Assembly: GCF_019112545.1 (NCBI RefSeq)
Contig: NW_025064883.1
Span: 1,500,100 to 1,564,099 of the forward strand
Length of the DNA: 64,000 nucleotides
DNA from: Guyanagaster necrorhizus
Lineage: Eukaryota > Basidiomycota > Agaricomycetes > Agaricales > Physalacriaceae
Direction of reading: 5' to 3'
Shown: piece by piece, positions 36,043 to 64,000 of the stretch
Layout: every line of letters starts with the position of its first letter
Numbering within the stretch: position 1 is the first letter of the stretch
The notes under the pieces: generated by a model
What the model saw: the letters and a program-made list of their open reading frames with translations, nothing else
Told to the model about the DNA's origin: nothing
The model's database searches: none
Position numbers and translations under genes: made by a program

Positions 36043-39000
36043 TCAAAGCCCTCTTGCATCTCTGTGAAGACTCGTGAGCATCGACAATATGCACTTATCA
36101 GTGGAACGCACGTACATATCTTTCGTTTGAAACGATTCAGCCGTTAACAAGTGACCATGGAGTATCTTTCCAAGATCAGTGGCTAGGTAAGGATGCCCTT
36201 TTCGTCGCGACCCCAATAGCGCTTTCAAGAAAGGCACCGGGCTCTCTTTGAAAGGTGAGATATCTCCATGAATGCGGTGTTCAGGCTTGATGAATCCATC
36301 ACTCATTGGGACACTGGCATTCGCAGATTGCTGTCCCTGGTACAGTCCTAGAAACGAGCATAGCTGCTGGTATTTATCGTAATCCTGCATGTATAGTTGA
36401 CCAGCGAAGATGTTCAGCTGGATTATTAAGAGGTCATCATTGATCTGGATGCTAGGTCCTGGGATACAGTGGAACTGAAGATCATCGAAAGCCTTTGTGG
36501 ACACGCTGACTTTGGGCGAATAGATGTGGAGATGTACTTTGGTGCTGGTGCGTATATCTGGCAATAACTCGTTGATTTCGAAGGGGCTGAATACAACGAG
36601 GATAGTATTCTCGTTTCGTTTCGCGGAAACGACCCAATTAATGGACCTCAGGTAGTCAGAAACATTACTATGGTTGGATGTCCTGATCGTCGTAGCAAAG
36701 TCCTCAGTGCAAAGTAGATTTGGTGTCCATATATTTTCACCGTTTCGAAGCATAGAGGAGATTCCTTCGAATGCACGAAACAGCGGCTTGAACGCAGGAG
36801 ACATATTCCGTACGATGCCTGTCCAAACGAACGCGCGAACATCAGGATGAAGCGAATGGCGAGCAGGTGAAGCCTTTGCAGGCCTTTCAACATGCCGCTC
36901 TCTCTCGATCTCGTGGCTGACTTCCCTTTCCTGCTCTTCATCCATATTTGTCTCAGAAACGAAGGAAAGGCCGAGCATTTCACAACGTTCGCGAAGATCA
37001 CCGACTTGCCAAATTGCTGAACCGGGAGCGGGACCATCCGAAAGACCGTATAATTCCTGAAGAGAGCGGCCTTCCGGCTGAAGCCACGGATTGAGGACCG
37101 CCGGTGATATGTCAGAAGAAATGCATGCCTCCCATGCTTCTTTTCTTCGTTGATAGTCATAACCCTGTTGCGCCCATTGAGGTACACGACGGGTGATTTC
37201 ATCGCAAGTTTCAAGCATGCTCCACCTCAAGATATCGACAGCCTTAATTTTGGCGGAGTCTGACTTCTGAGCCGCCTTTCTGATCTTCTGGTCTATCTCC
37301 CGAGGCGCAAAAAACATGACCGACTGCCCTTGACCAAGCTGTCGCATGCGCATAGCACCTAGAGCTTTAATGAGAAATTGTATATAACACAGTGTTCCGA
37401 GATGACTGACCTTGAACAAGCCTATCCTTTGTTACGTTCACGCCGAGGGTGACTGCTGCTCTGAAGTGAACAGGTAACTTCAAGTCTGTTCCTCTGGTAT
37501 GGGCTTCGTCCAGATAAACAACGCACTTGTCTAGCTGATACTTGAATGGAGATAGAAACAGTGGTTCCGCAACGCCCTGACGATTGAGGACCATCAGCTC
37601 ATCGGCATCATCGAAGTAAATGGCCGCGGAGAGCACTGAGGTAGGTCGCAAACCAAGCCAAGCCTTCGCCAATTGCTCGTTACGAAGCTCAAGCATCTGT
37701 GCCCCTACATCCAACAGGACACGAATCTCCGGCTTCTGGCGGACTAGAAGATCCAGGAACTTCTCCGTTGTCAGACTGCTGTTGGTCGATGGATCACAGA
37801 TACACTCATAATGATCGTTTTCCGGACGAAGGAGGCAATTCAACACTTTGGCATTGGTACTTCTCTGTTCAACAGGGTCGTACTGTTGAATGGATAAAGG
37901 AAGAAGATGGTGGTTGTCGTTTGTACCACTGAAACCTGTGGTGTGCTTGGATCTTCTTGCTGCCAAATCCCACCCTGACGTCGAAATCTTCTGGGGGAAC
38001 TCCTTTGCGTGTTTGGGAAATACGACATGGGATAAAAAGAAATCAACGACAGCACGGTGTCGGTGAAAGAGAGGTATCAAATATTGCGAACGTTGTTCCA
38101 TGTCTTTCAAGTTAATGCCAGCGATATGGAGCAGCTGTGACGGAACCTTCTCGTTGCCCTTGATCCAGGAGCAGTATTCGATGTTCGGATCGTCCTCTTT
38201 GAAAAGGAGCTCGAAACAGATGTCCACCTGTTCTTCGGTCAAGCCTGCATAATAATACGACAAACAAGTGAGGGTGATGGCGACGTCTGGATGGCCGAAC
38301 TCTGCTGCTAAAGAGGGAACATCCTTTGCACGATATGGAACGGCAAGCAGCGTTCGGCTAAGGTCCAATCCGTAGTCCACTCGATAGCGGCGCGCTTTCA
38401 AGACATAGACAAGGATACCATGCGCAAAGAGTCCACGGAGCAATAGCAGCAGGTTCCATGCATCCGTCCCGAGGTAAAGATCCTGGATGGACCTGGCTAC
38501 GTCTGACTTAACAGTAACTTCGGAGATGAAGTGTCTGACCTGTTGACGAAGGTCATCAGATAGTCGTGCAAAAATAGGATAGTTATCAAGTCTTCCGTTG
38601 AGAATCTGTGTGCATACGGAATCAACAAGCTCTATACCAGGATCGATCTTGTCGTCATTCGAATACAAGAAAATGAAGGGAAATGTGCCATCTTGCTTTT
38701 CAGAAAGACGGATTTCTACTGAACGAGGAGCTTTCGACTCCACGGACGAGATGACGTCGGTTACAAGTGTGAAAATTTGTTGAATGGTGGTCCAGCGCTC
38801 TGGGTGACCTTCCAGTGAGCGCTGTGTGCCTACTGTGTAGATAAGTTGGTAGCGGACATGGAGAATTTCGTCGCTTTCATCCAAAATATCCTTGACATGA
38901 CCATCAAGCCATTTTTGCAATTCTAAGAGCTGGGCAGCCTCAACATCTCGACCAATCCCATCTCCGCCATTGCCATCCAGGAGCCTGTTTACGCACATCA

Positions 39001-42000
39001 ACTTGAACGATAGAATGTGCTCCGGCTGAATAACCAACACACCGCCGTCATCCATGCATTGGCGATAGAGTTTCCAAATAGCTTCGATCTCTTTAGATCC
39101 CATGGCAAGGCGACGGGAGAATGGCATGTAAAATACACGACGATTTGTCAGTCCTGAGATACGCTGCACAAGTAATTGGAACATCTGTCTGGCCAAAGAC
39201 TTCAGAACCACAACTCGAACAATAGAGTGGCCATCGGCAGCAACGACAGCAGTCATGGGAACAATGACTGATGACTTCCCCTCCCCCATATTCAGCTGCA
39301 GAACAGAGTTTTCCTTCGACGACGGAGAAATTATTTCGTGTGCAACTGAGGTCTGAATAGAACGGCTGATAAAATTATTATCCACCTATTTCAAGTTCTA
39401 GTTAGTGGTGCAATCGAGAGACAAGAAGCACAGCTTACCTGAAGCAGGAGCCATTCCGGGCATATTGCAGTCACTCGGCCGTTACTCATCTCTCTGTAGA
39501 ATTCGATAGAATTCTCATTGACCACTGAAAGTAATAGTCGCTGCGCTCGTTGATGCTGGATGAATAGTAGTGCAAATTTTTCAATCATAGATTTCCACTC
39601 GATTCCAATGTCCTGAGTGATTTGGCAGAGGATGGAACGGGTATTGATGCATGGCCACAACCCTCCGAGCTGTAATGCTGATTCGTGAGAATTGGAGGCT
39701 TGCAGCAAAGCAGTGATCTGTGCCAACACACATGTCAGGACCTCCTGGCATGTAAATCGGTAGTTCTCCATCACAGACACAGGAATGGAGGGCAAAGCAT
39801 TATCGGAGGGTGAGGCCACAGAGACCAAATGTTGCAGACTTTCGTCGAGTTCTGCGCCATATAACTGCTTTAGTTTACTGTTACTGTTCTTGAACTTAAA
39901 TATCAAAGAAGCAAGCAGCCCGGTATCTGATACATTGCCCATACCCGAAGGTGATGAAGTAGGCAGATCATGTTCAATTGGCCAGAACATAGTTGTGACA
40001 TCATGAGCCGCTGCTATACAGACAGTGTTGCGAGAAACCAAGAGTTGTTTCAGGGTCGTGGCGATGGAGCGTGATTTAGACCGAGTCGAACATGCCATAA
40101 AGTTGTACTGAGTCATCTGTGGATGTGTTGTAAGAATGCTGGCGACGGCACCTTGTACGGTGTCAGTGACATGTCGCAACTGCCCGTTGTGGAAACAATG
40201 CTGAAAGTATGACATAACTGTGTCCAACAGCATGTCAATTTTGAACATTGATGAGAATTGGGTAAACTGAGATCTGTGGATGGGAGCTGGCTCAGTTTCC
40301 GGAGACCATGAGGCAAAAAGTTGTCGGCACACTGCAGGAGCTTGCTCACTGTCAAGACTATCATATGCTGCTTTTTTCCGATGAAGGAAAGATGAGTAGC
40401 TTTCCAAATCAAGCTGCACCATGGATGCAACAGGACTATCATCTAAGGAAACACGAGCATTTGAAACCATTTCAGCCAGTTTTCTTTCTTCTGGAGTGTC
40501 TCTGATAGATAGATCAAAGGATCTATGAGAATTGGTTGAACACCATAGAAGGTTCAAATTTCCTGATATGTGTTGCCAAGAGCATACAGTGAGAGCAAGC
40601 AATGAGGGGATCATGGTTTGGATGCTAGAATCATTATATGCCATAGCTGACATACTAAACAAGGCCTGCCACTGCCTAGTAGCAGCACTCAGACTATTGC
40701 AGTTTAGCAGCAGGAATGACAGCCAGTTTCTTTGGAGATGCTTAGAGCTGAGCCATAATCGCTTGTAAGACAGTGAAAAATCCACATCTGCAGGACCAAT
40801 GCTTCCCCAATCTGAGAGCTTCTCTGTTAGAGAAAAGCCTGGAATTCTGCAGAAGGATTCATGCTTAATCATCTGAGAAGTATTTGCAGCAATCCCATTA
40901 ATATCCTGTTCCTGATCATGAGAGTGGTATGCATTATCATAATCTTTTTCTTGGTGGTTGAATAATGAAAAATCAGCAGGATAAAGATGTGAAAGCCGGA
41001 AACTAGATCGATGCAACAAATGTGATGAAGTTGCATTACTGTTGAAGTCCAAAGTGCAATTAGAACTAATGCTAAAGACTTTAATAAGCCTTGCATAATC
41101 TATGATTGCTCCAACAAGCTTATGGAAAGCATGGTGTTGACCCTGGGATGAACAATAGTGATAATGCCACTGAATACTCTGCATGCTTTTCTTGTGTTTA
41201 GGATACCAAGTGTGATGGGGAGTAAGAGAACTGATATTGTGTAGTAACTTCAGATCTGTGTTTGAGATATTCTGGAATGAATAACAGATTGCAGATTGCA
41301 ATAAATGAATGGCTTCTTCAGTGCCAGTCTGTCCAGTGAGAGGATCAGGAAGGGAGTGACTGGATAGTGCATGCAAAAAGACCTGATATAGATTGCTGGT
41401 CAGATCAGGACTACTGACAAGATGACCAATATTACTATCAATAGTATAGTCATAGAACTTTACAGATCGAGCAGAGCCTGTCTGAATCACAATCTGAACA
41501 TGATCTTTTTGTTGCACAACCTGGACTTCTCCAAAAGGAATCAGAATATGCCGGCATTGAGGTAGCTTGAGACTATGTTTGGAGCATAAGACAAGCCGGC
41601 TCTCAAGACCCAACAATGATCCAGCACTCTGATTTTCATCAATCAACATATTAGGAAAATTGTAACATTCAAGTTTAGCATCCTTATTGAGAAAGAAGGA
41701 CAGTTGAAAGCGGGGTAAATCAATATGTAGGCTAGTATCAGAAGGAGCATAGGTTATATGAATGTAATGACATTGCTCAAAAATCTGAAGGCAGGCTGAT
41801 ACCATGTTAAATGTTTGACTATGAAGATCAATCATTTCATGGTCATCAAGAGACATCTTCCACTTAGAAGCATTGCAAATCATTCTCCAGTTCTGCTGAG
41901 ATGGCTTCCAAAGAGAAACAAGTGGCCGAAGTTCAACTTCAGAAGTGTTCAAGTTGATCCAATGTGTATATTCCTTGACAAACAGTTGTGGGAGATCACA

Positions 42001-45000
42001 TTCAAAAGTTGTATGTGGTATAAGCTCAAAAACAATATCATCCTTTTTGGCTTGTATAATAAGAGTATCATTTTTTAAGCCTAAATATATCTGCAATATT
42101 ATAAGTATCTGCCATCTGAAGTTTGAACAGTAACAACAAACCTGCCATCCTGAAATTAGACAGTGACTTGCATATTCAATGCCAGGTCTGTCAGAAGGAA
42201 TGACATCAAGGATTTTCTGTTCAGATATTAGCAATGAGTATATTAAAAGACAAACTGAAGACCCACTGTGCCAAAGATTCTACCATATGTTGCATGACTA
42301 GTAATATTCCATGGAAGCCGACTAAGTGGCTTGCCACTGATAAGGAGCAGCCCTGTCAGCAAGTTGAGATGCACTTGCTGAGACTGTTGGTCAGCATCCA
42401 CAGCTGTTGAAGTGCTGATCCATCGGTGATTGGGAGAATCCAACACTGTCCAATGAGTAGCATGATAGGCTGGCCATATAGATGTCACAGCAAGATTTAC
42501 ACCCTGCTGATAAGCACTGTTTAACTTCATATCCCACATGTATGGCTCAATGAAATGAGCAAGCCTCTCACTCCGGCGTAAAAGCCTCCATATTTCTGGT
42601 GATATGAATGCTTGTTTGACTGGAGTATTATCATGCATGATAATAGTACTTTCAACTAGAATTCTGATATCTTCATCAGACTGCAACAGAGCTGGAAGAT
42701 GCTCTGGTTCAACATCATATGTTGCTTGAATAGTAGTTGCTAATTTAAAGATATGGCATTGCAAATCCTGCATGACATTCTCTTTAACTGTCTTCTGAAG
42801 TTCATCAACAAGCATTTGCACCCATAAAAATACAGTAATCCGTGCTTTGCGCAGAATATCATATGCAGAGCAGCTATCTGTGTTATTGTTGACCATAAAA
42901 TGCAAGTGCTCAGTCAGAGTTGTTGTTACTAACAGCCGGCTTGTCAATAAGATGATTGACCTGAGAGTTACTCCCTCAAGCCAATTGCCTTCCACACTCA
43001 GCAAAAGATTCCATAGCTCTCTCAAAAGAACCTGACGAAAGGAAAGATCATAAAGGTCGATATGCCACTCCAGATCACCATTCTCAGCTACAACACCAAC
43101 CTGACATACACTTTGAGTCAAGAGTGTATGAACTGCTTCATGATTGAAAGTGAGCATTCGGGCTCTCAACTCTCTAACAATATTCAGCCACTGTAATCTT
43201 TCTCCCATCCGTAATCCAGTGAATGCTGCATATTCATGAAGCGTCAAACCAGTCAAGCAGTCAGACTGGTTAGCAATCATCTCATTTGATGTATGACTGG
43301 TATTACGAACTGCATGTGTCAAGTTATCATATATTCCATCTGGCATGAATCGAAGGGTGCATTGATCATGAATATCACAGTTTATGAAGGGGTTGGAAAT
43401 CCAGATGTCATTCTTAGAGTCATACAGCTCATATTTCAGGCCACTACAGAGACACACCTGCACCTCAGTAGTGGGAACTTTTTGCTCCTTGTAATGAGCT
43501 TGCAAGAATGACTTAGTTGATGATGCTATCATCACTCGGCCTAGATCTCTAGAAATATATCTTTGAAGAGGAGAGTAAGAAGCCAATGTCATAGGTGGAG
43601 AAGCAGAAGAGGTATTGTGAGCAGAAGATGGTGTGCAAAGGTCATGAAGAATGGTATAAGTTGCCACTCTCCAATGTTCAATGACAATTGGGCATTTAAC
43701 CTCAAAGACAACCATTTTTGCCATCTCCACATTATCAGGTAAAGGATGTTCATGGACAGCAATAGTCATGGATGTGTACTGTTTGTCAAGCCTGCACTTC
43801 CTGCATGCCTTGTCATGAACCCGCCTATAATCTCCATGCCGGCGCTGCCATCTCATAGTATATTCATGCTCCAAATGCTGTGCTTCTGCTTTGACAGCAT
43901 GATAATGATCATTTGCTCTCTGTAGCTCCTCAACTTTTCTCGCTCGTTCCAAAGCAGCATCATGTTCAATCCTCTGTTTGAGGTGCTGAAGTTCAGTGGA
44001 GGAATCGAAGTAACGGACAGCAAAGCTGCCATGACTGGCAGTTTCATCAAATAAGGACTCCCTGCACATTGCCGAATAATGACGATCACGAATGTACTGA
44101 GTGATTAGGACCATTCGTTTTAGAGATTTGGAATGTCGCAGCAGAAGAGGCTTCAAAAGGTCAATCGGAACCTCAGGCGAGTAATCGTGCAACAAGGGAT
44201 ACTGCGCTACTGCAACCTTATCCAATGCCACCCACAGACCTATGATTGTAAGGAGCATAAGCGACTCATCCTCCGCATTTGACAAATAGGCATTTTCAGC
44301 CTCCTTCATATATTCGAATAAGCAGACAGATAGAATGCCCGAAGTTGCACTTTCGTGAAGAACTCCTGAAAGCCAGGCATCTAGATGGTTCTCGACGCAG
44401 TATTCGAAGTCTGCTAGAGCAATGAATTTGTCTTCCCTAAAAGCCATGGTGAGGCGGTCTTTTGTAAGCGAAGAGAAATCTGGATTGTCTCTCAGACGAC
44501 TGACATGGTTGGGGGAAAAGGGAGATGTCGGTTGCGGAGAGGGGGCACGCCGCAGAACTTCTTCAATGTAAGCGCTCGAATTGGGAAGGGTAATGGTGGT
44601 GTCAGCAGCGATGTTCAGTTCTGAGGGATTCCAATAAGAAGATTTCTGCTGTTGAATCTCGAGGTCCCTGCCTCTCTCCTCGATAACAGCATTAACCTCC
44701 TTCCCTACAGAGTGCACTTTCTCTGTCAAAAACACGGGAGCAGATGAACTAAGTTTTGCGAGCCGACGACACATTTTCTTCTTCATGACGTCAATCAAGT
44801 CACTGTTCCATCTCTTCTGCCTTGCTTTATCTAAGATGGAGGCAATGAAATAGGTAAGGAAGAATTTGTAATCAGTATGGTCAACACCTTAGCAGGAGGT
44901 GAATATCTTCCATATGCCAGATGCAGAGCGACGAACCTTCAAAAAGCGAGGACTGCAGGGCTACGCGAAGTACGAGCCAAATCGGAGATCGCCTCCAGGG

Positions 45001-45760
45001 AAGCTTTGCATTCAACCACAGAACATCATCATTGATTCGCTTTGAAAAACGCTTGACATCAGCCGCCCGCCCTCCTTGACCGTACAAAATACCCGTGAGA
45101 AGCTGTGTGATAAAGCGAGGATGCGCAGGTTCCCGCTCTTCAATGACATTGTGACCGGCTTTTCGGCTTGTTGGTGATGCCTCCTCCAGAAAATCGTTAT
45201 GCATCTCCACCAAAAACGAGGCCAGTTCTTTACGAAAGGCGGGTGTTCTGAATGTCGCGCTAGGAAACGCTATGGCGGGGCCAGGAAAAGAAGAGATGAG
45301 TTTTCCGATGGCGCCCATGACCTTTTCGTTCGGAAACATGACCTCGAAGGCCTCGTAGATGACTTCTTCAGGCTGCCTTCGAAAGACGACGCATGCGTTC
45401 TGGGCATTGATGTGGTAGACAAGTATATCTAGACGCATCACGTTGGTATTGTTTCTCACAGGAAATAAGAAAAATATCACTCTTACCTCCAATATTCATC
45501 GATGACAGCTGTCGTTCTACTTCCGCAGACCCAAGGGTGGCGGTCAGAGTCGCTTTGAAATTCTGAAGCATATCGATAATGATATTCCACTTCTGTAGCT
45601 TGTGGACATCATTCTGAAGATACGCTCGATAGCAACGAGCACACTCCAAAACAGCATCGCATAACGCTGCGTCGTTGGATATATCCCGGTCGTCTTGCTG
45701 GGGCAGAACCGGTGGCATGAAAACATGATTGACGATGTAGGTGAGCACGGAGTCGTCCAT
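36043..45760 (-). CDS. Giant DUF6606-DUF3638-DUF3645 protein, intact copy
   Basis: Seven exons (45760-45487, 45428-44937, 44887-42267, 42216-42142, 42090-39439, 39385-37411, 37358-36043) sum to 9,405 nt, giving 3,134 residues with all phases consistent. The N-terminus is DUF6606-like: LTYIVNHVFMPPVLPQQDD, VYHINAQNACVVFRRQPEEV, FPGPAIAFPSATF, DVLWLNAKLPWRRSPIWLV. Around residues 2040-2260 is the DUF3638 block with a P-loop-like NMGEGKSSVIVPM (GEGKSS at 39286-39269), RRVFYMPFSRRL and VLVIQPEHILSFKLM. DUF3645-like sequence follows (DYGLDLSRTLLAVPYRAKDV). Near residue 2664 is a DEAH box, VVYLDEAHTRGTDL, and beyond it MRMRQLGQGQSVMFFA. The pairing of GKS and DEAH suggests an ATPase of helicase-like fold; this is inference. 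The family is widespread in fungi and has no settled function; some databases label it a ubiquitin hydrolase, but I see no clear protease triad. Bases 40.2-43.9 kb are strongly CpG-poor. Confidence 0.88.
40200..43900. other. CpG-depleted tract inside the giant gene
   Basis: By hand count, 40,801-42,300 contains about seven or eight CG dinucleotides in 1.5 kb, with most 60-base lines having none. The same gene has three or four per line at 38,101-38,220. TG and CA are correspondingly common. The change is abrupt: five CG in the line at 40,141, none at 40,201; at the other end CG returns between 43,800 and 44,000. The tract crosses two introns and parts of two long exons yet has no in-frame stop. 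The matching part of the broken paralogue is not depleted (for example eight CG in the line at 62,221). Confidence 0.75.
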
Positions 45761-46051: not shown

Positions 46052-47253
46052 TTATCTATATACATATCGGTACCGTGCATCCCCAACAAGATCAAGAGCG
46101 TTCTCCCTTCCTTGACGTCGTAACTCCATCGCCGACACCAATTGCTGCTCTCCCCTCACCTTTGCAAAGCTCGAAATAGCTCGTACCCGCTCGAGCATTC
46201 TCTGGTTTGCCGCCTCTGGCAATACACTCCGCGGCATGTCCCCCCGTCCACGGAACGGCTCTAGCTCGTACGCTCTCAACACGCGTGAGAGGTTCCCCCA
46301 GGCTCTCGATGGGTCAGAGAGGACCTCGACGGTTGTTATGTCGATGAAACCCTTCCGTGTAAGGAGGGGCATCTGAGAACTCAAAGTCTGGAGGGGAGCG
46401 GAACTCATCATTGCCGGATTAAATGCGTTCCCGAATAGACCCTGTAGCTGGGTTGTTACGGAGGGAGTTGTGGATCCCGGTGGGTTGTGTCTATGCTTGA
46501 GGACGTGCTCGATGGAAAAGAGGTCGTAGGCGTTTCTCAGTGCCTTGTCCGCCATGTTCTCCTCGGAACCACCGTACATAGTATCCACAACGAGGTTTGA
46601 TTTCCCTATGATGTGCGTTAGCAACTTCTTTGAAGCGAAGAGAAATAAAAATACTTGCAGACGTTCTCGTGAAGTAGGTACCCTTGATCATCCAAGAACC
46701 GCGAGTATGCTTCGGGGGTGAGATACCCAGTATACGACGGGTCTAGAAATGTGAAGATCGTGTTGAAGAACACGTCGCCGACGGCAGTGACATTCATGTA
46801 ATCGTCGAACAACGGGCCCCAAGCTAGCATCTCGCTACGATCGGCGGTGACGTTTGGTGGATCAGTGGGGGGAATACGTGGAGATGGTGGGACTGCGCTA
46901 GGACTTTCTGATGCACTGCTACCAGAGTTGGGCCTCGGTGGTAATGGGGGCGGTGGGCCTGATGATTGCCTACGCGGTGGGAGAGGCGGAGGACTGCTGG
47001 AAGTTGGAGAGAGACGAACAGGAACAGTATAGGTCAAGGATACAGTCTCTGACAATGAGGGCGGCAAGTCGCCTCCTCCACTGAACCTGTATATCTGGGT
47101 GCGATGAGACGAGTCGTGTTGGCGTGTAAATCGTTCGCCGAGAGCACAATCAGCACACAAGTCGTAGTCGGCACAGGTGAGGCAGTGAACCCGTGGCTTG
47201 GACGGTAAGATGGCCTGAGAACAGGAATCACAGTTGATATGGCTGGGAATCAT
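46052..47253 (-). CDS. ZZ zinc-finger protein with DUF7514-type C-terminal domain
   Basis: Two exons (47253-46659, 46605-46052) sum to 1,149 nt, giving 382 residues. The N-terminus is a ZZ-type zinc finger: INCDSCSQAILPSKPRVHCL, TCADYDLCADCALGERF, then HDSSH. A proline-rich linker follows (SSPPPLPPRRQ, GPPPPLPPRPN), of a kind that binds SH3 or WW domains. The C-terminal domain starts AWGPLFDDYMNVTAVGDVFF and continues FTFLDPSYTGYLTPEAYSRF, GKSNLVV-like NLVVDTMYGG and KGFIDITTVEVLSDPSRAWG. The intron at 46658-46606 begins GCAAGT. Only this GC-AG intron keeps both halves in frame; the nearest GT gives a wrong frame. Function unknown; similar proteins are common in basidiomycetes. Confidence 0.8.
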
Positions 47254-47575
47254 GAGTGATGATGGCCGACCTAGAAAATCCAGCTTTGTATCTTTATTCT
47301 GGTGATAACCGTCAAGGGGCAAGGGGCAATCTTCAATCCCCGCACGCCAAGGACGTTCATGTCAAGTTGGCGGTCAACAACTGGCCTTAATGCACTACGA
47401 GTACCTGATTCCAGTCTTAGTAGGAAAATTGTGGTTACAATCATTGTGCATACCAGCCAAGTGTTGTTATTAGTATATGCTCGTCGACGGTAGAGCAAAA
47501 TAGATTCCGAGTATTCGTGAAAATGCTGATCAAGGTCGACGAGCTGCAACCAGTCAAATCAAGAGGATCGGCAAA
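47254..47575. other. Divergent promoter region, 322 bp
   Basis: A gap between the starts of the ZZ protein and ASA1. A short plus-strand open frame at 47,302-47,493 has no family features. No motif recognised. Confidence 0.4.
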
Positions 47576-57539: not shown

Positions 57540-60500
57540 TGCAGGAAAATGATTCTGGTGTCAATGAATGTCCGTGTAGCAACTTTCCAATACGTGTTGC
57601 CCTTCCTCCGCAGCCCAAACAACTCCTTCAAGAATGGAACAGGGCTCTTCGTAAAAAGAGGAATGTCTTGTCGACCACCTTGTGAACGGTATTGCTTCGT
57701 GATGAATCCATCGCTTTGGAATGGAAGACCGGGGCGGTTTCACCGGCCAAGTGAAGACCCAAAAACAAACAAAGCGTACGATAGGCACCGTAATCCGTCA
57801 CGTATAACTGGCCTGCGAAGATATTGAGCCGCGTCGCTATATGGCTATCGACAGAGAAGACATCGAGCGGACCGAGGAGTCGTGGGAAGTAATGGAACTG
57901 AAGGTCGTCGAATGGTTTTGTCGTCGAAGTCACCCTTGGTGCATAAACATGAAGACGTACGACTTTGCTGGTTCGTATGATAGGCAATAGCTCATTGACT
58001 TCGAATGGGCTGAGGACAACCAGTCGCAGTTCATCGCCCTTCGTGGAAGAGATGATCCAGTTGACAGATCTCAGGAATTGCGAAGAGGGATCCTGGAACC
58101 TTCCCCGTACGGACACATAGTCCTCACGCAAGTCGGTTTTCGTGAAGTCACTGGTGCATAGTAGCCGAGAAGCCCATGCGTCTCCATTGTATGATTCGAG
58201 ACCTCTTGAGACGACAGAATAACGGCACGAGGGTAGAGTTTGAGCGAATGGTGCCTGTTTCAAGGAGACTACGGATGTGACGGAGTATGGAATGCGTCGC
58301 GGGTTCGCACTTTGCTGGCCTTTCGATCCGCTGTTCCCGCTCTATTTCCTGGCTCACTTCCCTCTCCTGCTTTTCATCCATGTTACTGCCAGATACAAAT
58401 GTGACGCCAATCTTTCGACAACGGTCTCGAAGCCCCGGAATGCTCATAAGAGATTCATTTATGGTGGCGGTGCTTGTATTCACCCCGTATAAATCCACGA
58501 GAGAGCGTCCTTCTGGCTGAATCCAAGGGTGGAGAAGATGATCGGCCAATTCCGAATCAATGAAAGCGTCCCAGGCATCCCTTCTCCGGAAATAGTCTAG
58601 TCCTTGCTGTGCCCAGTGAGGAACATGATAGGTGATACCATCGCACGTTTCAATCATGACCCAACGCAGAACATCGATGGTTTCCAACGCGGCCGATTCG
58701 GATTTTTTCGCTGCGATCCTGATCCTTTGGTCTATCTCGAGCGGTGCGAAGAACATCACTGACTGTCCTTGGCCTAGCTGTCGCATTCTCATGGCGCCTA
58801 TGAAGTCCCATTAGCACACGACAAAGTTCAAATAAACACAAGCTGACCTTGCACAAGAGGATCTTTCGTATGCTGCTCTGAATGTAAGGGCAACTTAAGA
58901 TCCGTGCCTCTCGTATGGGCTTGATCAAGATAGACCAGACACTTGTCCAGCTGGTACTTCAAGGGAGGCAACAGCAGTGGCTCCGTGCTATCGCGTTGAT
59001 TCAGTACCATCAATTCGTCCGACTCACTGAAATACACAACTGCCGACAAGTCCGGACGTAAAGAGAGCCAATGCTTGACCAGTTGCTCTTTGCGAAGTTC
59101 GAGCATCTGCGCCCCAACATCTAGCAGTACTCGGACTTCAGGTTGTTCTTGGACGAGAAGACCAAGGAACTCTTGAGCGGTTGGGCTATTTCCGTTATGG
59201 AAATTGTGCAGACACGAATAGTGATTGTTCTCAGGCTGCAGAAGATAAGTCAAGACTTTAGCATTCGTGCTTTGCTGATTGAGGGGATCGCATTGCTGGA
59301 TAGAAGTAGGGAGAAGGTACTGATTATCGTTAGTGCCGCTGAAGCCTGTCGTTACGTTGGGGTTGCTCTCTGCAAGATCCCATCCTGACGAAGAGAGCTT
59401 TGACGGGAACTCCTTTGCTTCTTTTGGGAAGACAACCTGTGACAAGAAGAAATCGATAACAAAGTGGTTTTGGCGGAACAGAGGAACAAGGTAGGTCGAC
59501 CATTGCTCCTTGTCCTTGATGTTGACTCCGCAACTGCGCTGGTATGGCACGACTGATCTTGATCCAGGTTTCATATTCCGAAAATGGATCGTCTTGTTTG
59601 AAGAGAAGCTGGAAACAAGTTTCGAGCTGACCTTCGGTCAATCCATTGTAGTAGTAGGATAGGCAAGTTAAGAGAAATGGCAACATCTGGATGGCCAAAT
59701 TCCGCCAACAGTGAAGGGACATCCTTGGCCCTGTATGGCACTGCTAGAAGACTTCGGCTAAGGTCCAAACCATAATCGACTCTCCAGTGGCGTGAGGATA
59801 GAACGTAGTGAAGAATTCCATGTGCAAATACTCCCCTAAGTATAAGGAGACGCCATGTATTCGTCCCAAAGCATTGATCCTGGATTGCACGAGCTACATC
59901 CTTGCCAATGTGAAGTTGGGTGATGAACGTCTGTACGACATCGATGGGAAGTCGTGAGAAAAATGGATAATTTGGGAGTTGCCCATTGAGAATTTTTTCA
60001 CAAAAGCGTCGCCAGCTTCGCGTTGAGTAATGCGGAAGAATGGGAAAGAACCATCCCGTGGACGAACTTCGACTCCTAGAGGAAACTCTTGCTGAATGGC
60101 TGGAGCACAACTTGCGAGGAGGGTGAAAATCTGTTGTATTGTCGTCCAACGGTCTGGATAACCTTCCAAAGATCTTTGTTGTCCGATAATGTAGATAAGC
60201 TGATACCGGCAATGGAGGATTTCGTCGCTGTCATCCAATATGTCCCTGGAATGTGCGGTTATCCATTCTTGTAATTCCAACAGACAGTAGATGGGGTTTC
60301 CGCATCCTCTTCATCGGGGTCAACCGGCGCATGTATTAGGCGGTCGATGCACATCAGGCGGAACGGTAGAATATGTTCAGGCTGGATGACCAGAATACCA
60401 CGCACTCCCATACACTTCGTATACAGGTTGCGAATGAGCCTGACTCGCTCAGCAGTAACGTCAAGCTGCCGAGAGAAGGGCATGTAGAAAATGCGTCGAT

Positions 60501-63500
60501 CCAAAAGTCCTCCTAGATGTTGCACAAGCATCTGAAACATTTGTTTGCAAGAGGCTTGAGCACCACCACTCTGACAATAGCCTCTCCCGCTGCCAAAGCG
60601 GCAGCAGCCATGGGAACAATGACCGAAGAATTTTCTTCTCCCATATTGAGTTGGAGGACAGAGTTCTCGTTTGACGAGGGTGAGATAATTTCTTCGGCGA
60701 CATTAGTCTGAATAGGCCGACAGATGAAGTCGTTCTCCACCTAGCGTTTTGAAGAAAAGATATTATCAATAAGACGTCGATAAGATGAGGATAACAACCT
60801 GGAGTAAGATCCACTCGGGATAACTCACGGCCGTAACAATGTTATTACGCTCTTCCTTGTAAAATTCCGTAGTATTTCCCTTGATGACTGCACGAAGTAG
60901 CCGTTGGGACCGTTGGTACTCCAAGTACAGAAATGCGTACACCGTTATACTACTTGTCAGAATATCTTCAACCTTCAGAATGCGACACAGAATGGACCTA
61001 GGAATAAGACGAGGCCATTTCCCAGCAAGCTGGAGGACGCGTTTATTACGAGAAGAGCAATGTATCAATGTCTTATCGATATTTTCGGGTGCTTCCTCCG
61101 TAGATTGTCGACATTCATCACGGTATATTTCGGCGTCCTCAACTGTCCAAAGAATTGAGGCAGGGAGAGATGGCGAGGGAGATTGAGAGAGCAGTGACAA
61201 CTGACTTTGCTCCAGATCTGTACCGTAGAGCTTCTTACACATGTCGGAGCTTTGTTGGAATTCTTTGACGAGCGATCCAAGCTCGGTGGTGTTTGGTGGT
61301 GCGCGTGCAGAGTTGGAAAGATCAAGCGAGCGGAATGGGACCATGAAAGTATTGGTGGTGGCCAGATCTCTTTGGATGAATAACCGAGAGAGAGATAGTG
61401 GAAAGCAGAGACGTGTGGCTTTCGGCGCAGGGGTTGAAGCGATAACGGGGCACCGTTTCTATCATGGCATTTAGCAGTGCATCGTTGATAACGGCTTGTG
61501 CTGCGCTCATGACATTCACCACACGGTCATTATGGTAACAAGCTCTGAAATATCACCATGGCTGTAGCAATGTCAAACATGATGAAATCAGCCGCCTGAC
61601 GTGCAGTCATGGTCGGCTCTTCACAAGGCCAGTCGCGGAAGGGACGCCGCAATAGCTGTTGCGCTTGCTGAGTCTGAAGATTCTCGTACGCCAACCGCCT
61701 CCTAGTACGAAACGCATCATACTATTCCGTAGCACGCTGCCTGAGCTCTCCAGCAGGACTGTCTTGCAAAGACACAGTCATCTCCAAAATTATTTCCTTC
61801 ACTTTTATCTGGCTAGGCTTGGTTTCAACCGAAAGGTCAAGATGAAGTGATGAGGCTGATCATCACAATATGTCAAAGCGGAGAAAGTGAAGATCGACTG
61901 CCAATGGCGCCTCTGGAGAGATGCGGGATTTTGCGGACTTGAGTGTACTGCGTAGATGAACGAAATCCAGTTGCGCTACAAATAAGATGCGCTGAGCCAA
62001 TGTCTCTTATAAGAGAAGGAAAAGTCCTCTCCACTGTCACAGGGTCCAATGGCGTTCCATTCGTAGAACCTAGTCAGTAGATTCGGGGATGAGTCAGTGC
62101 GGACGGGCCGATCTGCACCATGCGTGACATGTTCGATGAGATATTCTCATACTCGCGCTCAAGATCCCGAGACTGATGAACTGCACCCCGCTTCTTTGAT
62201 GAAAGAGCAAAGGAAAACTCCTCAGGGTAGAACGCGGCTAGACGGAACGTTGCACGGAGCGAAAGGCGGGACGGTGTAGGATCTTTACTATCAATGTCAC
62301 CATCTGGCTTATCTGCAAAGACTTGCATTTCAAGGGCATGCTGCAAAACAGAACCGACAAGCTTAGAAAAATAGTAGTGCTGAGATAGAGTCGACACGCC
62401 AATTTGCCAGTGAACACAGTGGCTGGTTTGCGATTTGGTGGTCCAGGAGCGGCGCGGAGTCAAGGTACTGATCTTATTCAACAGTGCAATTTCGTGCTTC
62501 TGGATCGATTGGAACGAAAAGCATGTCGCGGACTGAAGTTCACGAAGAGCTTCTTCTGTACCCGTCTGCATCGTCAAAGGGTCAGGGAGACAGTAACTGC
62601 TCAGTACAAGGAGGTAAATTTGGTACAGATTTCCGGCCAAGCTCGTATGGCTGACCAGACAACCCATGTCGCTGTCGATCATGTACTCGTGGTAGAGAAC
62701 CTTTCGGGAAGAACCATGTTCAATGGAAATGCTGACTTGATACTGCTGATAGCGAACTTCTCCGTAAGGTATAAGGATGCGCCTACAACAAGGAAGCCCA
62801 TAATGGTCCTTGGAGAGAAGGATTAGATAACCGACTTATTGAACCAAAAACACCTGTATACATCGCATGTATAGTTATAGACCGCAGAAGACGACCAAGT
62901 GGTTTTCCATTGATGAGCAGCGAGCCCGACAGCAGATTCAAATGCACATTTTGTGCCTGTTGGGCTGCATCGGCAACGGTCTTCGTGGTAATACAACGTT
63001 CACTGGGCTCTTCTAGCAGGCACCACTGAAGGTTTGATCGATACCCTGGCCATATAGACTTGATAGCATCGTCCAAACCCTCCGTTCCTACAGCCAATCT
63101 ATTGGATAACCATGGCTCGATATAGCAAGCAAGACGTTCATTCTGTAAATCGTGTGACATAGCCTGTGGTTTAGCAGGGGAGTTGTCATAGATCGTGATC
63201 GCGCATTCGATCAGAATAGAATTGTCCTCGCGAGATTGTAGGAGTTTTGGCAAAGTGTATAGGATCGACGTCGAAGGTAGAACGACACGTCGCAGTTATC
63301 TCGAAAACGCGTCGCTGAAATCGTGGATAACATCCTCCTCTGCTCGTTGGAGTTTGCTGACAAGTTGGCACATCCAAGCAAAGGTTATCTCTCTGGCCCG
63401 ACGGAGCAACTGGTACGCCATGTCGACGGCAGGCAACGACGTGGATGCTGCGGATGCTAACATTCGACTAGCCAGCAAAATGATTGTCCGGACAGTGACC

Positions 63501-64000
63501 CCTTCAAGCCAGTTGGCTTCAACACTCCCAAACAGATCGTTTAACTCTCAAAAGGAGCTCGCAGAAGTCGGGAGACTCCAACTCCTGGTGCGACGGCAAG
63601 GTACTGTCCTCAGAGACCACGCCCACCTGCCATGCGCTTTGAGTCAAAAGTGTATGCACTGGGTCACGGCTGAAAGTGAGTATGCGAGATCTCAACTCTC
63701 TAGCAATATTCATCCATTGTAGTCTGGGCCCGGCCCGTTAACTACCGAATGCCTCGTACTCGTGCAAGGTTAGCCCTTGCGGGCAATCTGATTGGTTTGC
63801 GATGACCTCGTTTGAAGTATGAGTCATATTCCGGATTGCGTATGTTAGACCATCGTAAACGCCGTCCAGAGTGATTCGAAGAGTGCAGAGATCCCGGATA
63901 TCGCAACTCTCGAAGGGATCATCAATCCAAGCATCCCCAGCTGCATCGTAAAGACGATAAGTCAATGCATTAGGTAGGCAGACATCAGACTCTGAATATG
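57540..64000 (-). pseudogene. DUF6606/DUF3638/DUF3645 giant-gene pseudogene (partial, runs off right edge)
   Basis: A second copy of the 36.0-45.8 kb gene on the same strand, aligned throughout but broken many times. Seen directly: the P-loop is NMGEENSSVIVPM (60641-60624), so the GKS Lys is gone; the DEAH box is YLDQAHTRGTDL (58,915-58,940). A one-base loss after VVVLKPLA near 60,550 shifts the frame until QMLVQHLGGLLDRRIFYMPF. Between VFGS (about 62,860) and MIDSDMGCLVS (about 62,680) only some 180 nt remain where the intact gene has about 900. A TAA at 63740-63738 replaces a codon of the LTLHEYEAFG block. There is another shift near 63,545 and others close to the C-terminus (57,570-57,690). 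It still ends at the same GKLLHGHSLTPESF-type block. It cannot make the full protein. The DUF6606 end lies beyond the window. Confidence 0.85.

What the first reader, a model, noticed from the sequence alone, without database searches (positions are those of the whole stretch)
40200..43900. Sharp 3.7-kb CpG-poor block inside an intact gene
Seen: about seven or eight CG in 1.5 kb against three to four per 60 bases a few kb away in the same gene, with abrupt borders near 40,200 and 43,900. The frame stays open and the tract ignores exon-intron borders. TG/CA are raised. Known: CpG methylation occurs in basidiomycetes and deamination turns CG into TG/CA; duplicated DNA is methylated in Coprinopsis-type premeiotic methylation. 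Inference: the block was either long methylated (perhaps because of its paralogue) while selection kept the frame, or it was swapped in by gene conversion or introgression from a CpG-poor source.
Basis: partly seen in the sequence, partly recalled or inferred. Interest (0 to 1): 0.75.

Follow-up and report, generated by a model that had tools for sequence, protein, structure and literature searches.

The report
CpG-stripped stretch inside a working gene
A 3.7-kb stretch in the middle of one large mushroom gene has lost almost every silent CpG site while keeping its protein readable, as if only that part of the gene had been DNA-methylated for a very long time, although fungi are thought largely to lack methylation inside genes.

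Summary
CpG o/e falls from about 0.97 to 0.10-0.32, with change points at 40,186-40,336 and 43,899-44,073, both inside exons of a 9.7-kb DUF6606/DUF3638/DUF3645 gene (minus strand, about 45,760-36,043).

Codons show how it arose. At silent CpG-capable sites the block keeps 4 of 280 CpGs, against 31-51% in neighbouring segments. Given the same protein, 135 CpGs are expected at codon positions 2-3 and 3-1, and 4 are seen; Arg CGN codons number 28 against 40 expected. Non-CpG sites change much less. Slow CpG-only decay, screened by selection on the protein, fits; a burst, a decayed donor or amino-acid constraint does not.

The genome also holds depleted tracts (o/e 0-0.3), some with retroelement domains, but no other low bin lies in the 73.9 kb examined here. 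The tandem paralogue is not depleted. Armillaria orthologue proteins hint at the same decay.

Best reading: a long-lived, sharply bounded intragenic 5mC domain in a functional basidiomycete gene. Methylation was not measured; the trigger is unknown.

The parts
40186..43950 (-). CpG-depleted block inside the coding sequence (core by silent sites 40,309-43,932)
   Evidence: CpG o/e 0.10-0.32 per 500 bp; segment score 126 nats against at most 13.9 simulated; silent CpG 2 of 267 in the best segment, 4 of 280 in 40,190-43,990
40186..40336 (.). left change-point interval (towards the 3' end of the gene)
   Evidence: two-change-point likelihood at silent sites, 2 log-likelihood units
43899..44073 (.). 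right change-point interval (towards the 5' end of the gene)
   Evidence: same test
36043..45760 (-). host gene; ATG at 45,760 matches the start of Armillaria gallica P0001; end at 36,043 is the end of the last ORF (inferred)
   Evidence: tblastn of homologues, ORFs, both ends translated
44881..45492 (-). ORF with DUF6606 (PF20255)
   Evidence: 213.7 bits, cut-off 27
37367..39385 (-). ORF with DUF3638 (PF12340) and DUF3645 (PF12359)
   Evidence: 285.1 and 64.5 bits, cut-offs 31 and 25
42217..42266 (-). 50-nt intron inside the block, no CG
   Evidence: GT...AG; removing it joins the conserved GTKILDV reading
42091..42141 (-). 51-nt intron inside the block, no CG
   Evidence: GT...AG; removing it joins SGWQIYLGL as in orthologues
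38750..40190 (-). weak shoulder of lower silent CpG
   Evidence: 38/123 against 106/240, p = 0.017
57547..64000 (-). tandem paralogue, same strand, continuing in L011 to about 66,240; not CpG-depleted
   Evidence: tblastn; CpG ratio 0.98; silent CpG 0.44-0.55 in 4 ORFs

Best explanation
The middle of this functional gene has carried symmetric CpG methylation in the inherited genome over a very long time. Deamination of methyl-C removed nearly every CpG whose loss is silent; purifying selection on the protein kept many of the CpGs that encode Arg. The domain is intragenic, sharply bounded, independent of exon borders and not explained by a neighbouring transposon or a close duplicate. I infer that it is copied through replication by the usual basidiomycete maintenance enzymes (DNMT1-RFD, perhaps DNMT5) and does not reach either gene end. 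Shown here: the CpG-specific loss, its borders, the selection filter, and the absence of loss in the paralogue. Inferred: 5mC as the cause, maintenance copying, and persistence across Armillaria species.
For: Silent CpG 4/280 in the block against 0.31-0.51 in neighbouring segments. Same-protein expectation 40/54/82 CpG at codon positions 1-2/2-3/3-1, observed 28/3/1. TG and CA rise equally: 88 and 91 per kb against 69 and 72 in the flanks. G/A third positions outside CpG nearly unchanged. At 58 columns with outgroup-majority Arg, 18 CGN codons remain where 1.3 are expected without selection. The same kind of CpG loss occurs in other tracts of the genome: 29.7% of 380 sampled bins are below 0.35. 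Two DNMT1-RFD loci and six DNA_methylase matches in the genome. Of Arg losses at outgroup-Arg columns in the block, H/Q/C/W make up 19/31 in this gene, 15/25 in P0042, 7/10 in P0041, 8/18 in P0001.
Against: No methylation data. C/T third positions outside CpG also lose some C (for example 0.66 to 0.47 before A, 0.40 to 0.26 before C), so the tract is not purely CpG-changed. Plain pairwise Arg exchanges with A. gallica are not more CpG-like in the block (7 of 20) than in the N flank (8 of 18), so sharing of the decay among species is only moderately supported. The few outgroup-Arg columns 3' of the block also have 2 of 3 losses to H/Q/C/W. No trigger identified. Reviews report no or little CG gene-body methylation in fungi.
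Confidence: 0.75

Rival explanations
1. Past rather than present methylation: a heterochromatic patch (for example from a transposon or small-RNA source now gone) covered this exon region for a long time and has since been lost; the block is a fossil footprint.
For: Sampled depleted tracts carry retroelement domains in 4 of 10 open frames scanned; weak left shoulder; the A. novae-zelandiae protein suggests a different extent there.
Against: No other 500-bp bin below o/e 0.5 in 73.9 kb; longest + strand frame across 40,001-44,200 is 92 codons; no Rfam match in 36-48 kb. The near-absence of silent CpG suggests that the pressure has not long ceased.
Confidence: 0.15
2. A duplicate-triggered premeiotic process (RIP- or MIP-like) set off by the tandem paralogue.
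For: A tandem same-strand paralogue exists, and related species also have two copies on one contig (P0041 and P0043).
Against: The paralogue is not depleted and is homologous well beyond the block. DNA matches to the block are only 67-68% identical. A burst would remove Arg CpGs like silent ones: 18 CGN kept against 1.3 expected, and about 6 CGA-to-TGA stops expected against none.
Confidence: 0.04
3. Gene conversion or introgression from a CpG-poor source.
For: Sharp borders inside exons.
Against: Block and flanks are closest to the same orthologue group; introns are present; the donor would itself need long methylation under protein selection; DNA search of the own genome finds no close second copy (which scores best candidates only).
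Confidence: 0.03
4. Selection against CpG or amino-acid constraint rather than mutation.
For: None specific; Arg uses AGR more in the block (28 of 56, against 30 of 106 in the flanks), which both models allow.
Against: Same protein with flank codon usage gives 175 CpG on average, minimum 143 in 2,000 draws, against 32; Arg losses go to H/Q/C/W (19/31), as expected of deamination; the paralogue and ten other window ORFs are normal.
Confidence: 0.03

Closest known systems
CG gene-body methylation (animals, plants)
   Same: Exon interior of an apparently functional gene, both gene ends free; CpG loss with TG/CA gain
   Different: Reviews report none or little in fungi (passages); here it is sharply bounded and is not seen in the paralogue or in two other large-gene stretches
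Transposon-targeted CpG methylation and decay of basidiomycetes
   Same: Same CpG loss as the depleted tracts of this genome
   Different: A host coding sequence under purifying selection, with no other depleted bin in 73.9 kb
RIP / MIP
   Same: C:G to T:A change at a locus with a tandem paralogue
   Different: CpG-specific, gradual, screened by selection, one copy only, paralogue diverged
Maintenance-only DNMT5 methylation of Cryptococcus (passage in PMC9246332; its persistence over millions of years is recalled)
   Same: Would account for a stable, sharply bounded domain without a present trigger
   Different: [quoted passage not shown] here it is inside a gene, and the genome also has DNMT1-RFD loci

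Membership tests
5mC-driven CpG decay | CpG loss with TG and CA gain on both strands | tested here: met
   CG 8.5 against 53.5 per kb; TG 88 and CA 91 against 69 and 72
5mC-driven CpG decay | Other contexts little changed | tested here: inconclusive
   G/A third positions nearly unchanged; C/T third positions lose C moderately outside CpG
5mC-driven CpG decay | Cytosines methylated | not testable with these tools
   No methylome
CG gene-body methylation | Interior of a functional gene, start and end free | tested here: met
   Block 1.8 kb from the ATG and 4.1 kb from the gene end; frame open; Arg CpGs kept
CG gene-body methylation | Present on many genes | tested here: inconclusive
   Not seen in the paralogue, ten other window ORFs or two large-gene stretches; genome-wide survey not possible
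RIP/MIP (duplicate-triggered) | All copies of a close duplicate are hit | tested here: not met
   Paralogue CpG ratio 0.98; 67-68% DNA identity where it matches the block
RIP/MIP (duplicate-triggered) | Change limited to the duplicated length | tested here: not met
   Paralogue matches far beyond the block on both sides
Heterochromatin spread from transposons | Depleted or transposon-bearing DNA next to the tract | tested here: not met
   No other bin below 0.5 in 73.9 kb; transposon domains were not searched for across the window
DUF6606/DUF3638/DUF3645 proteins | The three Pfam domains in order in one gene | tested here: met
   All over cut-off; order as in homologues

The most novel reading that the evidence does not exclude
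A single-gene, intragenic 5mC island copied by maintenance methylation through speciation in the Armillaria lineage, with borders that move between species (in A. novae-zelandiae it reaches the 3' part of the gene), kept in a functional gene at the price of a steady Arg-to-His/Gln/Cys/Trp load. It would be a gene-specific heritable epigenetic state that can be read from DNA sequence.
Probability: 0.35. Interest if true: 0.82.

Novelty: new variant of a known kind. Interest (0 to 1): 0.66.

Why it matters
One review passage suggests that fungi lost gene-body methylation because methylated exons mutate. Here a coding region seems to have paid that cost long enough to come near saturation at silent sites. 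It gives a built-in measure of methylation-driven mutation against protein selection within one gene, with the flanks and the tandem paralogue as controls. If the domain is inherited without a trigger, it would make long-term epigenetic inheritance at a single fungal gene directly testable.

Tried and rejected
Amino-acid constraint: rejected by the same-protein codon simulation. Chance: 126 nats against a maximum of 13.9 in 200 simulations. TCG-preferring context: residual TCG is not specially low (21 TCG: 188 TTG, against 8 ACG: 226 ATG, both strands), though confounded by Arg selection. Antisense gene or known structured RNA: no + strand frame above 92 codons in 40,001-44,200, no Rfam match in 36-48 kb. 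General long-gene effect: not seen in a 7-kb dynein heavy chain stretch (o/e 0.90, two of its 14 bins at 0.4 and 0.6) or a 6-kb FAT-domain gene stretch (0.95). The pairwise test of Arg exchanges between close orthologues did not separate block from N flank for A. gallica; I therefore rest the orthologue claim on outgroup-Arg columns and Arg content and call it moderate. Retained CGN Args in the block are not more conserved among homologues than those in the flanks (mean 0.62 against 0.61). Orthologue DNA could not be reached. Literature: ten searches were counted; in their listings (titles and starts of abstracts) I saw no report of a CpG-stripped tract inside a functional basidiomycete gene, but most subscription papers are not held and three look-ups failed. 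Of papers I saw only passages found by term in PMC7862722, PMC13297926, PMC9246332, PMC12774611 and PMC12470499; the last gave nothing useful.
Full report
WHAT IS THERE. The window is C4:1,500,100-1,564,099 of a 53.3-Mb genome in 109 contigs. Its closest named protein relatives are from Armillaria (A. gallica P0001 74%; A. novae-zelandiae P0033 and P0046), so it is probably a relative of that genus; the species was not identified. The minus-strand gene starts at ATG 45,760, matched to A. gallica P0001, and ends near 36,043 (end of the last ORF; inferred). It carries DUF6606, DUF3638 and DUF3645. The block lies between DUF6606 and DUF3638.

THE BLOCK IS REAL. CpG o/e is 0.10-0.32 in 500-bp bins from 40,501 to 44,000; the 120 bins outside 40,001-44,000 average 0.97 (sd 0.17, minimum 0.59). 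The best CpG-poor segment scores 126 nats; 200 Markov sequences reach 13.9 at most. The two change points lie in exons, with intervals of 150 and 174 bp. Inside the block are two small introns. A mild shoulder lies on the left (silent CpG 38/123 against 106/240 further out, p = 0.017); the right one is not significant (28/78, p = 0.24).

THE CODONS TELL HOW IT AROSE. I split CpGs by codon position. In 1,227 block codons there are 28 CpGs at positions 1-2 (Arg CGN), 3 at 2-3 and 1 at 3-1. Drawing codons for the same protein from flank usage gives 40, 54 and 82 (2,000 draws). At silent sites that could be CpG, 4 of 280 are, against 0.31-0.51 in neighbouring segments and 0.31-0.55 in 14 other window ORFs presumed coding, four of them in the paralogue. 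Outside CpG, G/A third positions hardly change (for example 0.63 and 0.63 after T), while C/T third positions lose some C (0.66 to 0.47 before A; 0.49 to 0.41 before T). TG and CA rise equally. So the loss is mainly CpG-specific, hits both strands, and has been screened change by change by selection on the protein. A one-generation burst would have removed Arg CpGs at the same rate: at 58 columns where at least half of the outgroup has Arg, 18 CGN remain where 1.3 are expected (P about 1e-14), and about 6 CGA-to-TGA stops are expected where none is seen (the expectations assume flank codon shares). Remaining Arg CpGs are mostly CGA/CGG (21 of 28, against 30 of 76 in the flanks, p = 0.002). Those codons can be regenerated silently from AGA/AGG, so I infer a mutation-selection balance.

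GENOMIC BACKGROUND. In 19 sampled 10-kb stretches, 29.7% of 380 bins are below o/e 0.35; some stretches are at 0-0.3 nearly throughout and some have abrupt edges (L027 contains 1,420 masked bases). In 56.5 kb of depleted sample the longest open frame is 277 codons. Of ten of its 29 open frames of at least 120 codons scanned with Pfam, four hit retroelement families and six hit nothing. So a like CpG loss operates on transposon-bearing tracts here. In the 73.9 contiguous kb around this gene no bin outside the block is below 0.5. A 7-kb dynein heavy chain stretch and a 6-kb FAT-domain gene stretch are near normal (0.90 and 0.95; single bins of the first fall to 0.4 and 0.6). The genome has two DNMT1-RFD loci and six DNA_methylase matches; [quoted passage not shown]

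NOT THE PARALOGUE. All four DUF3638 matches in the genome lie in this gene and the tandem paralogue. The paralogue matches along the whole gene; its two DNA matches to the block are 67-68% identical, and it is not depleted (0.98).

ORTHOLOGUES. From the hits I took six as orthologues (P0001, P0002, P0033, P0041, P0042, P0046) and ten others as outgroup; these are proteins, no DNA. At outgroup-Arg columns this gene keeps 27 of 58 in the block, against 17 of 23 in the N flank and 4 of 7 in the 3' flank and 19 of 29 in the DUF3638 exon with 16 outgroup proteins (its columns may overlap the seven). Pooled, 27/58 against 40/59, p = 0.025; losses to H/Q/C/W are 19 of 31 against 5 of 19 (1/6, 2/3, 2/10), p = 0.02. 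In the block P0042 shows 15 of 25 such losses, P0041 7 of 10, P0001 8 of 18 (0 of 6 in its N flank), P0002 2 of 5 (2 of 5 in its N flank), P0046 2 of 5, P0033 1 of 1 (3 of 8 in its N flank). Lineages differ at the same Arg, for example H/R/C at 42,755 and Q/W/Q at 42,728 in this gene, P0001 and P0042, which suggests that the process ran separately in several species. Arg content in 42.2-40.2 kb is 3.2% here, 3.9% in P0041, 3.0% in P0042 and 3.6% in P0046, against 5.1-7.7% in seven outgroup proteins with more than 400 aligned residues there. Against this, plain pairwise counts with A. gallica show no excess in the block (7 of 20, against 8 of 18 in the N flank). In A. novae-zelandiae (P0046) the flank 3' of the block has H/Q/C/W at 21 places where this gene has Arg, against 1 in reverse (p = 1e-5), so the tract may be longer there. 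A general CpG decline in that gene or species cannot be excluded; for the N flank its protein P0033 gives 4 against 1.

CONCLUSION. The best explanation is a long-standing, sharply bounded 5mC domain inside a functional gene. Its cause is unknown. Reviews, read in passages, state that no CG gene-body methylation was found across 40 fungal genomes (PMC9246332), or that most fungi lack it, with exceptions such as Uncinocarpus reesii and Metarhizium robertsii (PMC7862722; PMC13297926). That makes this an unusual case that a methylome could settle.

Noticed in passing
window 57,547-64,000, continuing in L011 to about 66,240: The tandem paralogue matches in short pieces in several frames, with in-frame stops in its matches: many introns or a degenerating copy. 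Its nearest named relative is Desarmillaria tabescens P0050.
   Followed up: partly
L015 about 7,000; L018 about 3,200; L024 about 3,200: Abrupt edges between CpG-normal and CpG-depleted DNA in sampled stretches. L024 beyond its edge stays at an intermediate 0.5-0.8.
   Followed up: no
P0041, P0043 and P0113: All three come from a contig of the same length (337,442 bases), so a related species seems to have two gene copies close together as well.
   Followed up: partly
window 46,618-47,322: An ORF with a ZZ zinc finger just upstream on the same strand, probably a separate gene.
   Followed up: no
P0046, part matching window 40,120-36,000: The A. novae-zelandiae protein is Arg-poor 3' of the block: 21 Arg-to-H/Q/C/W differences against 1 in reverse, as if its decayed tract were longer.
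   Followed up: partly
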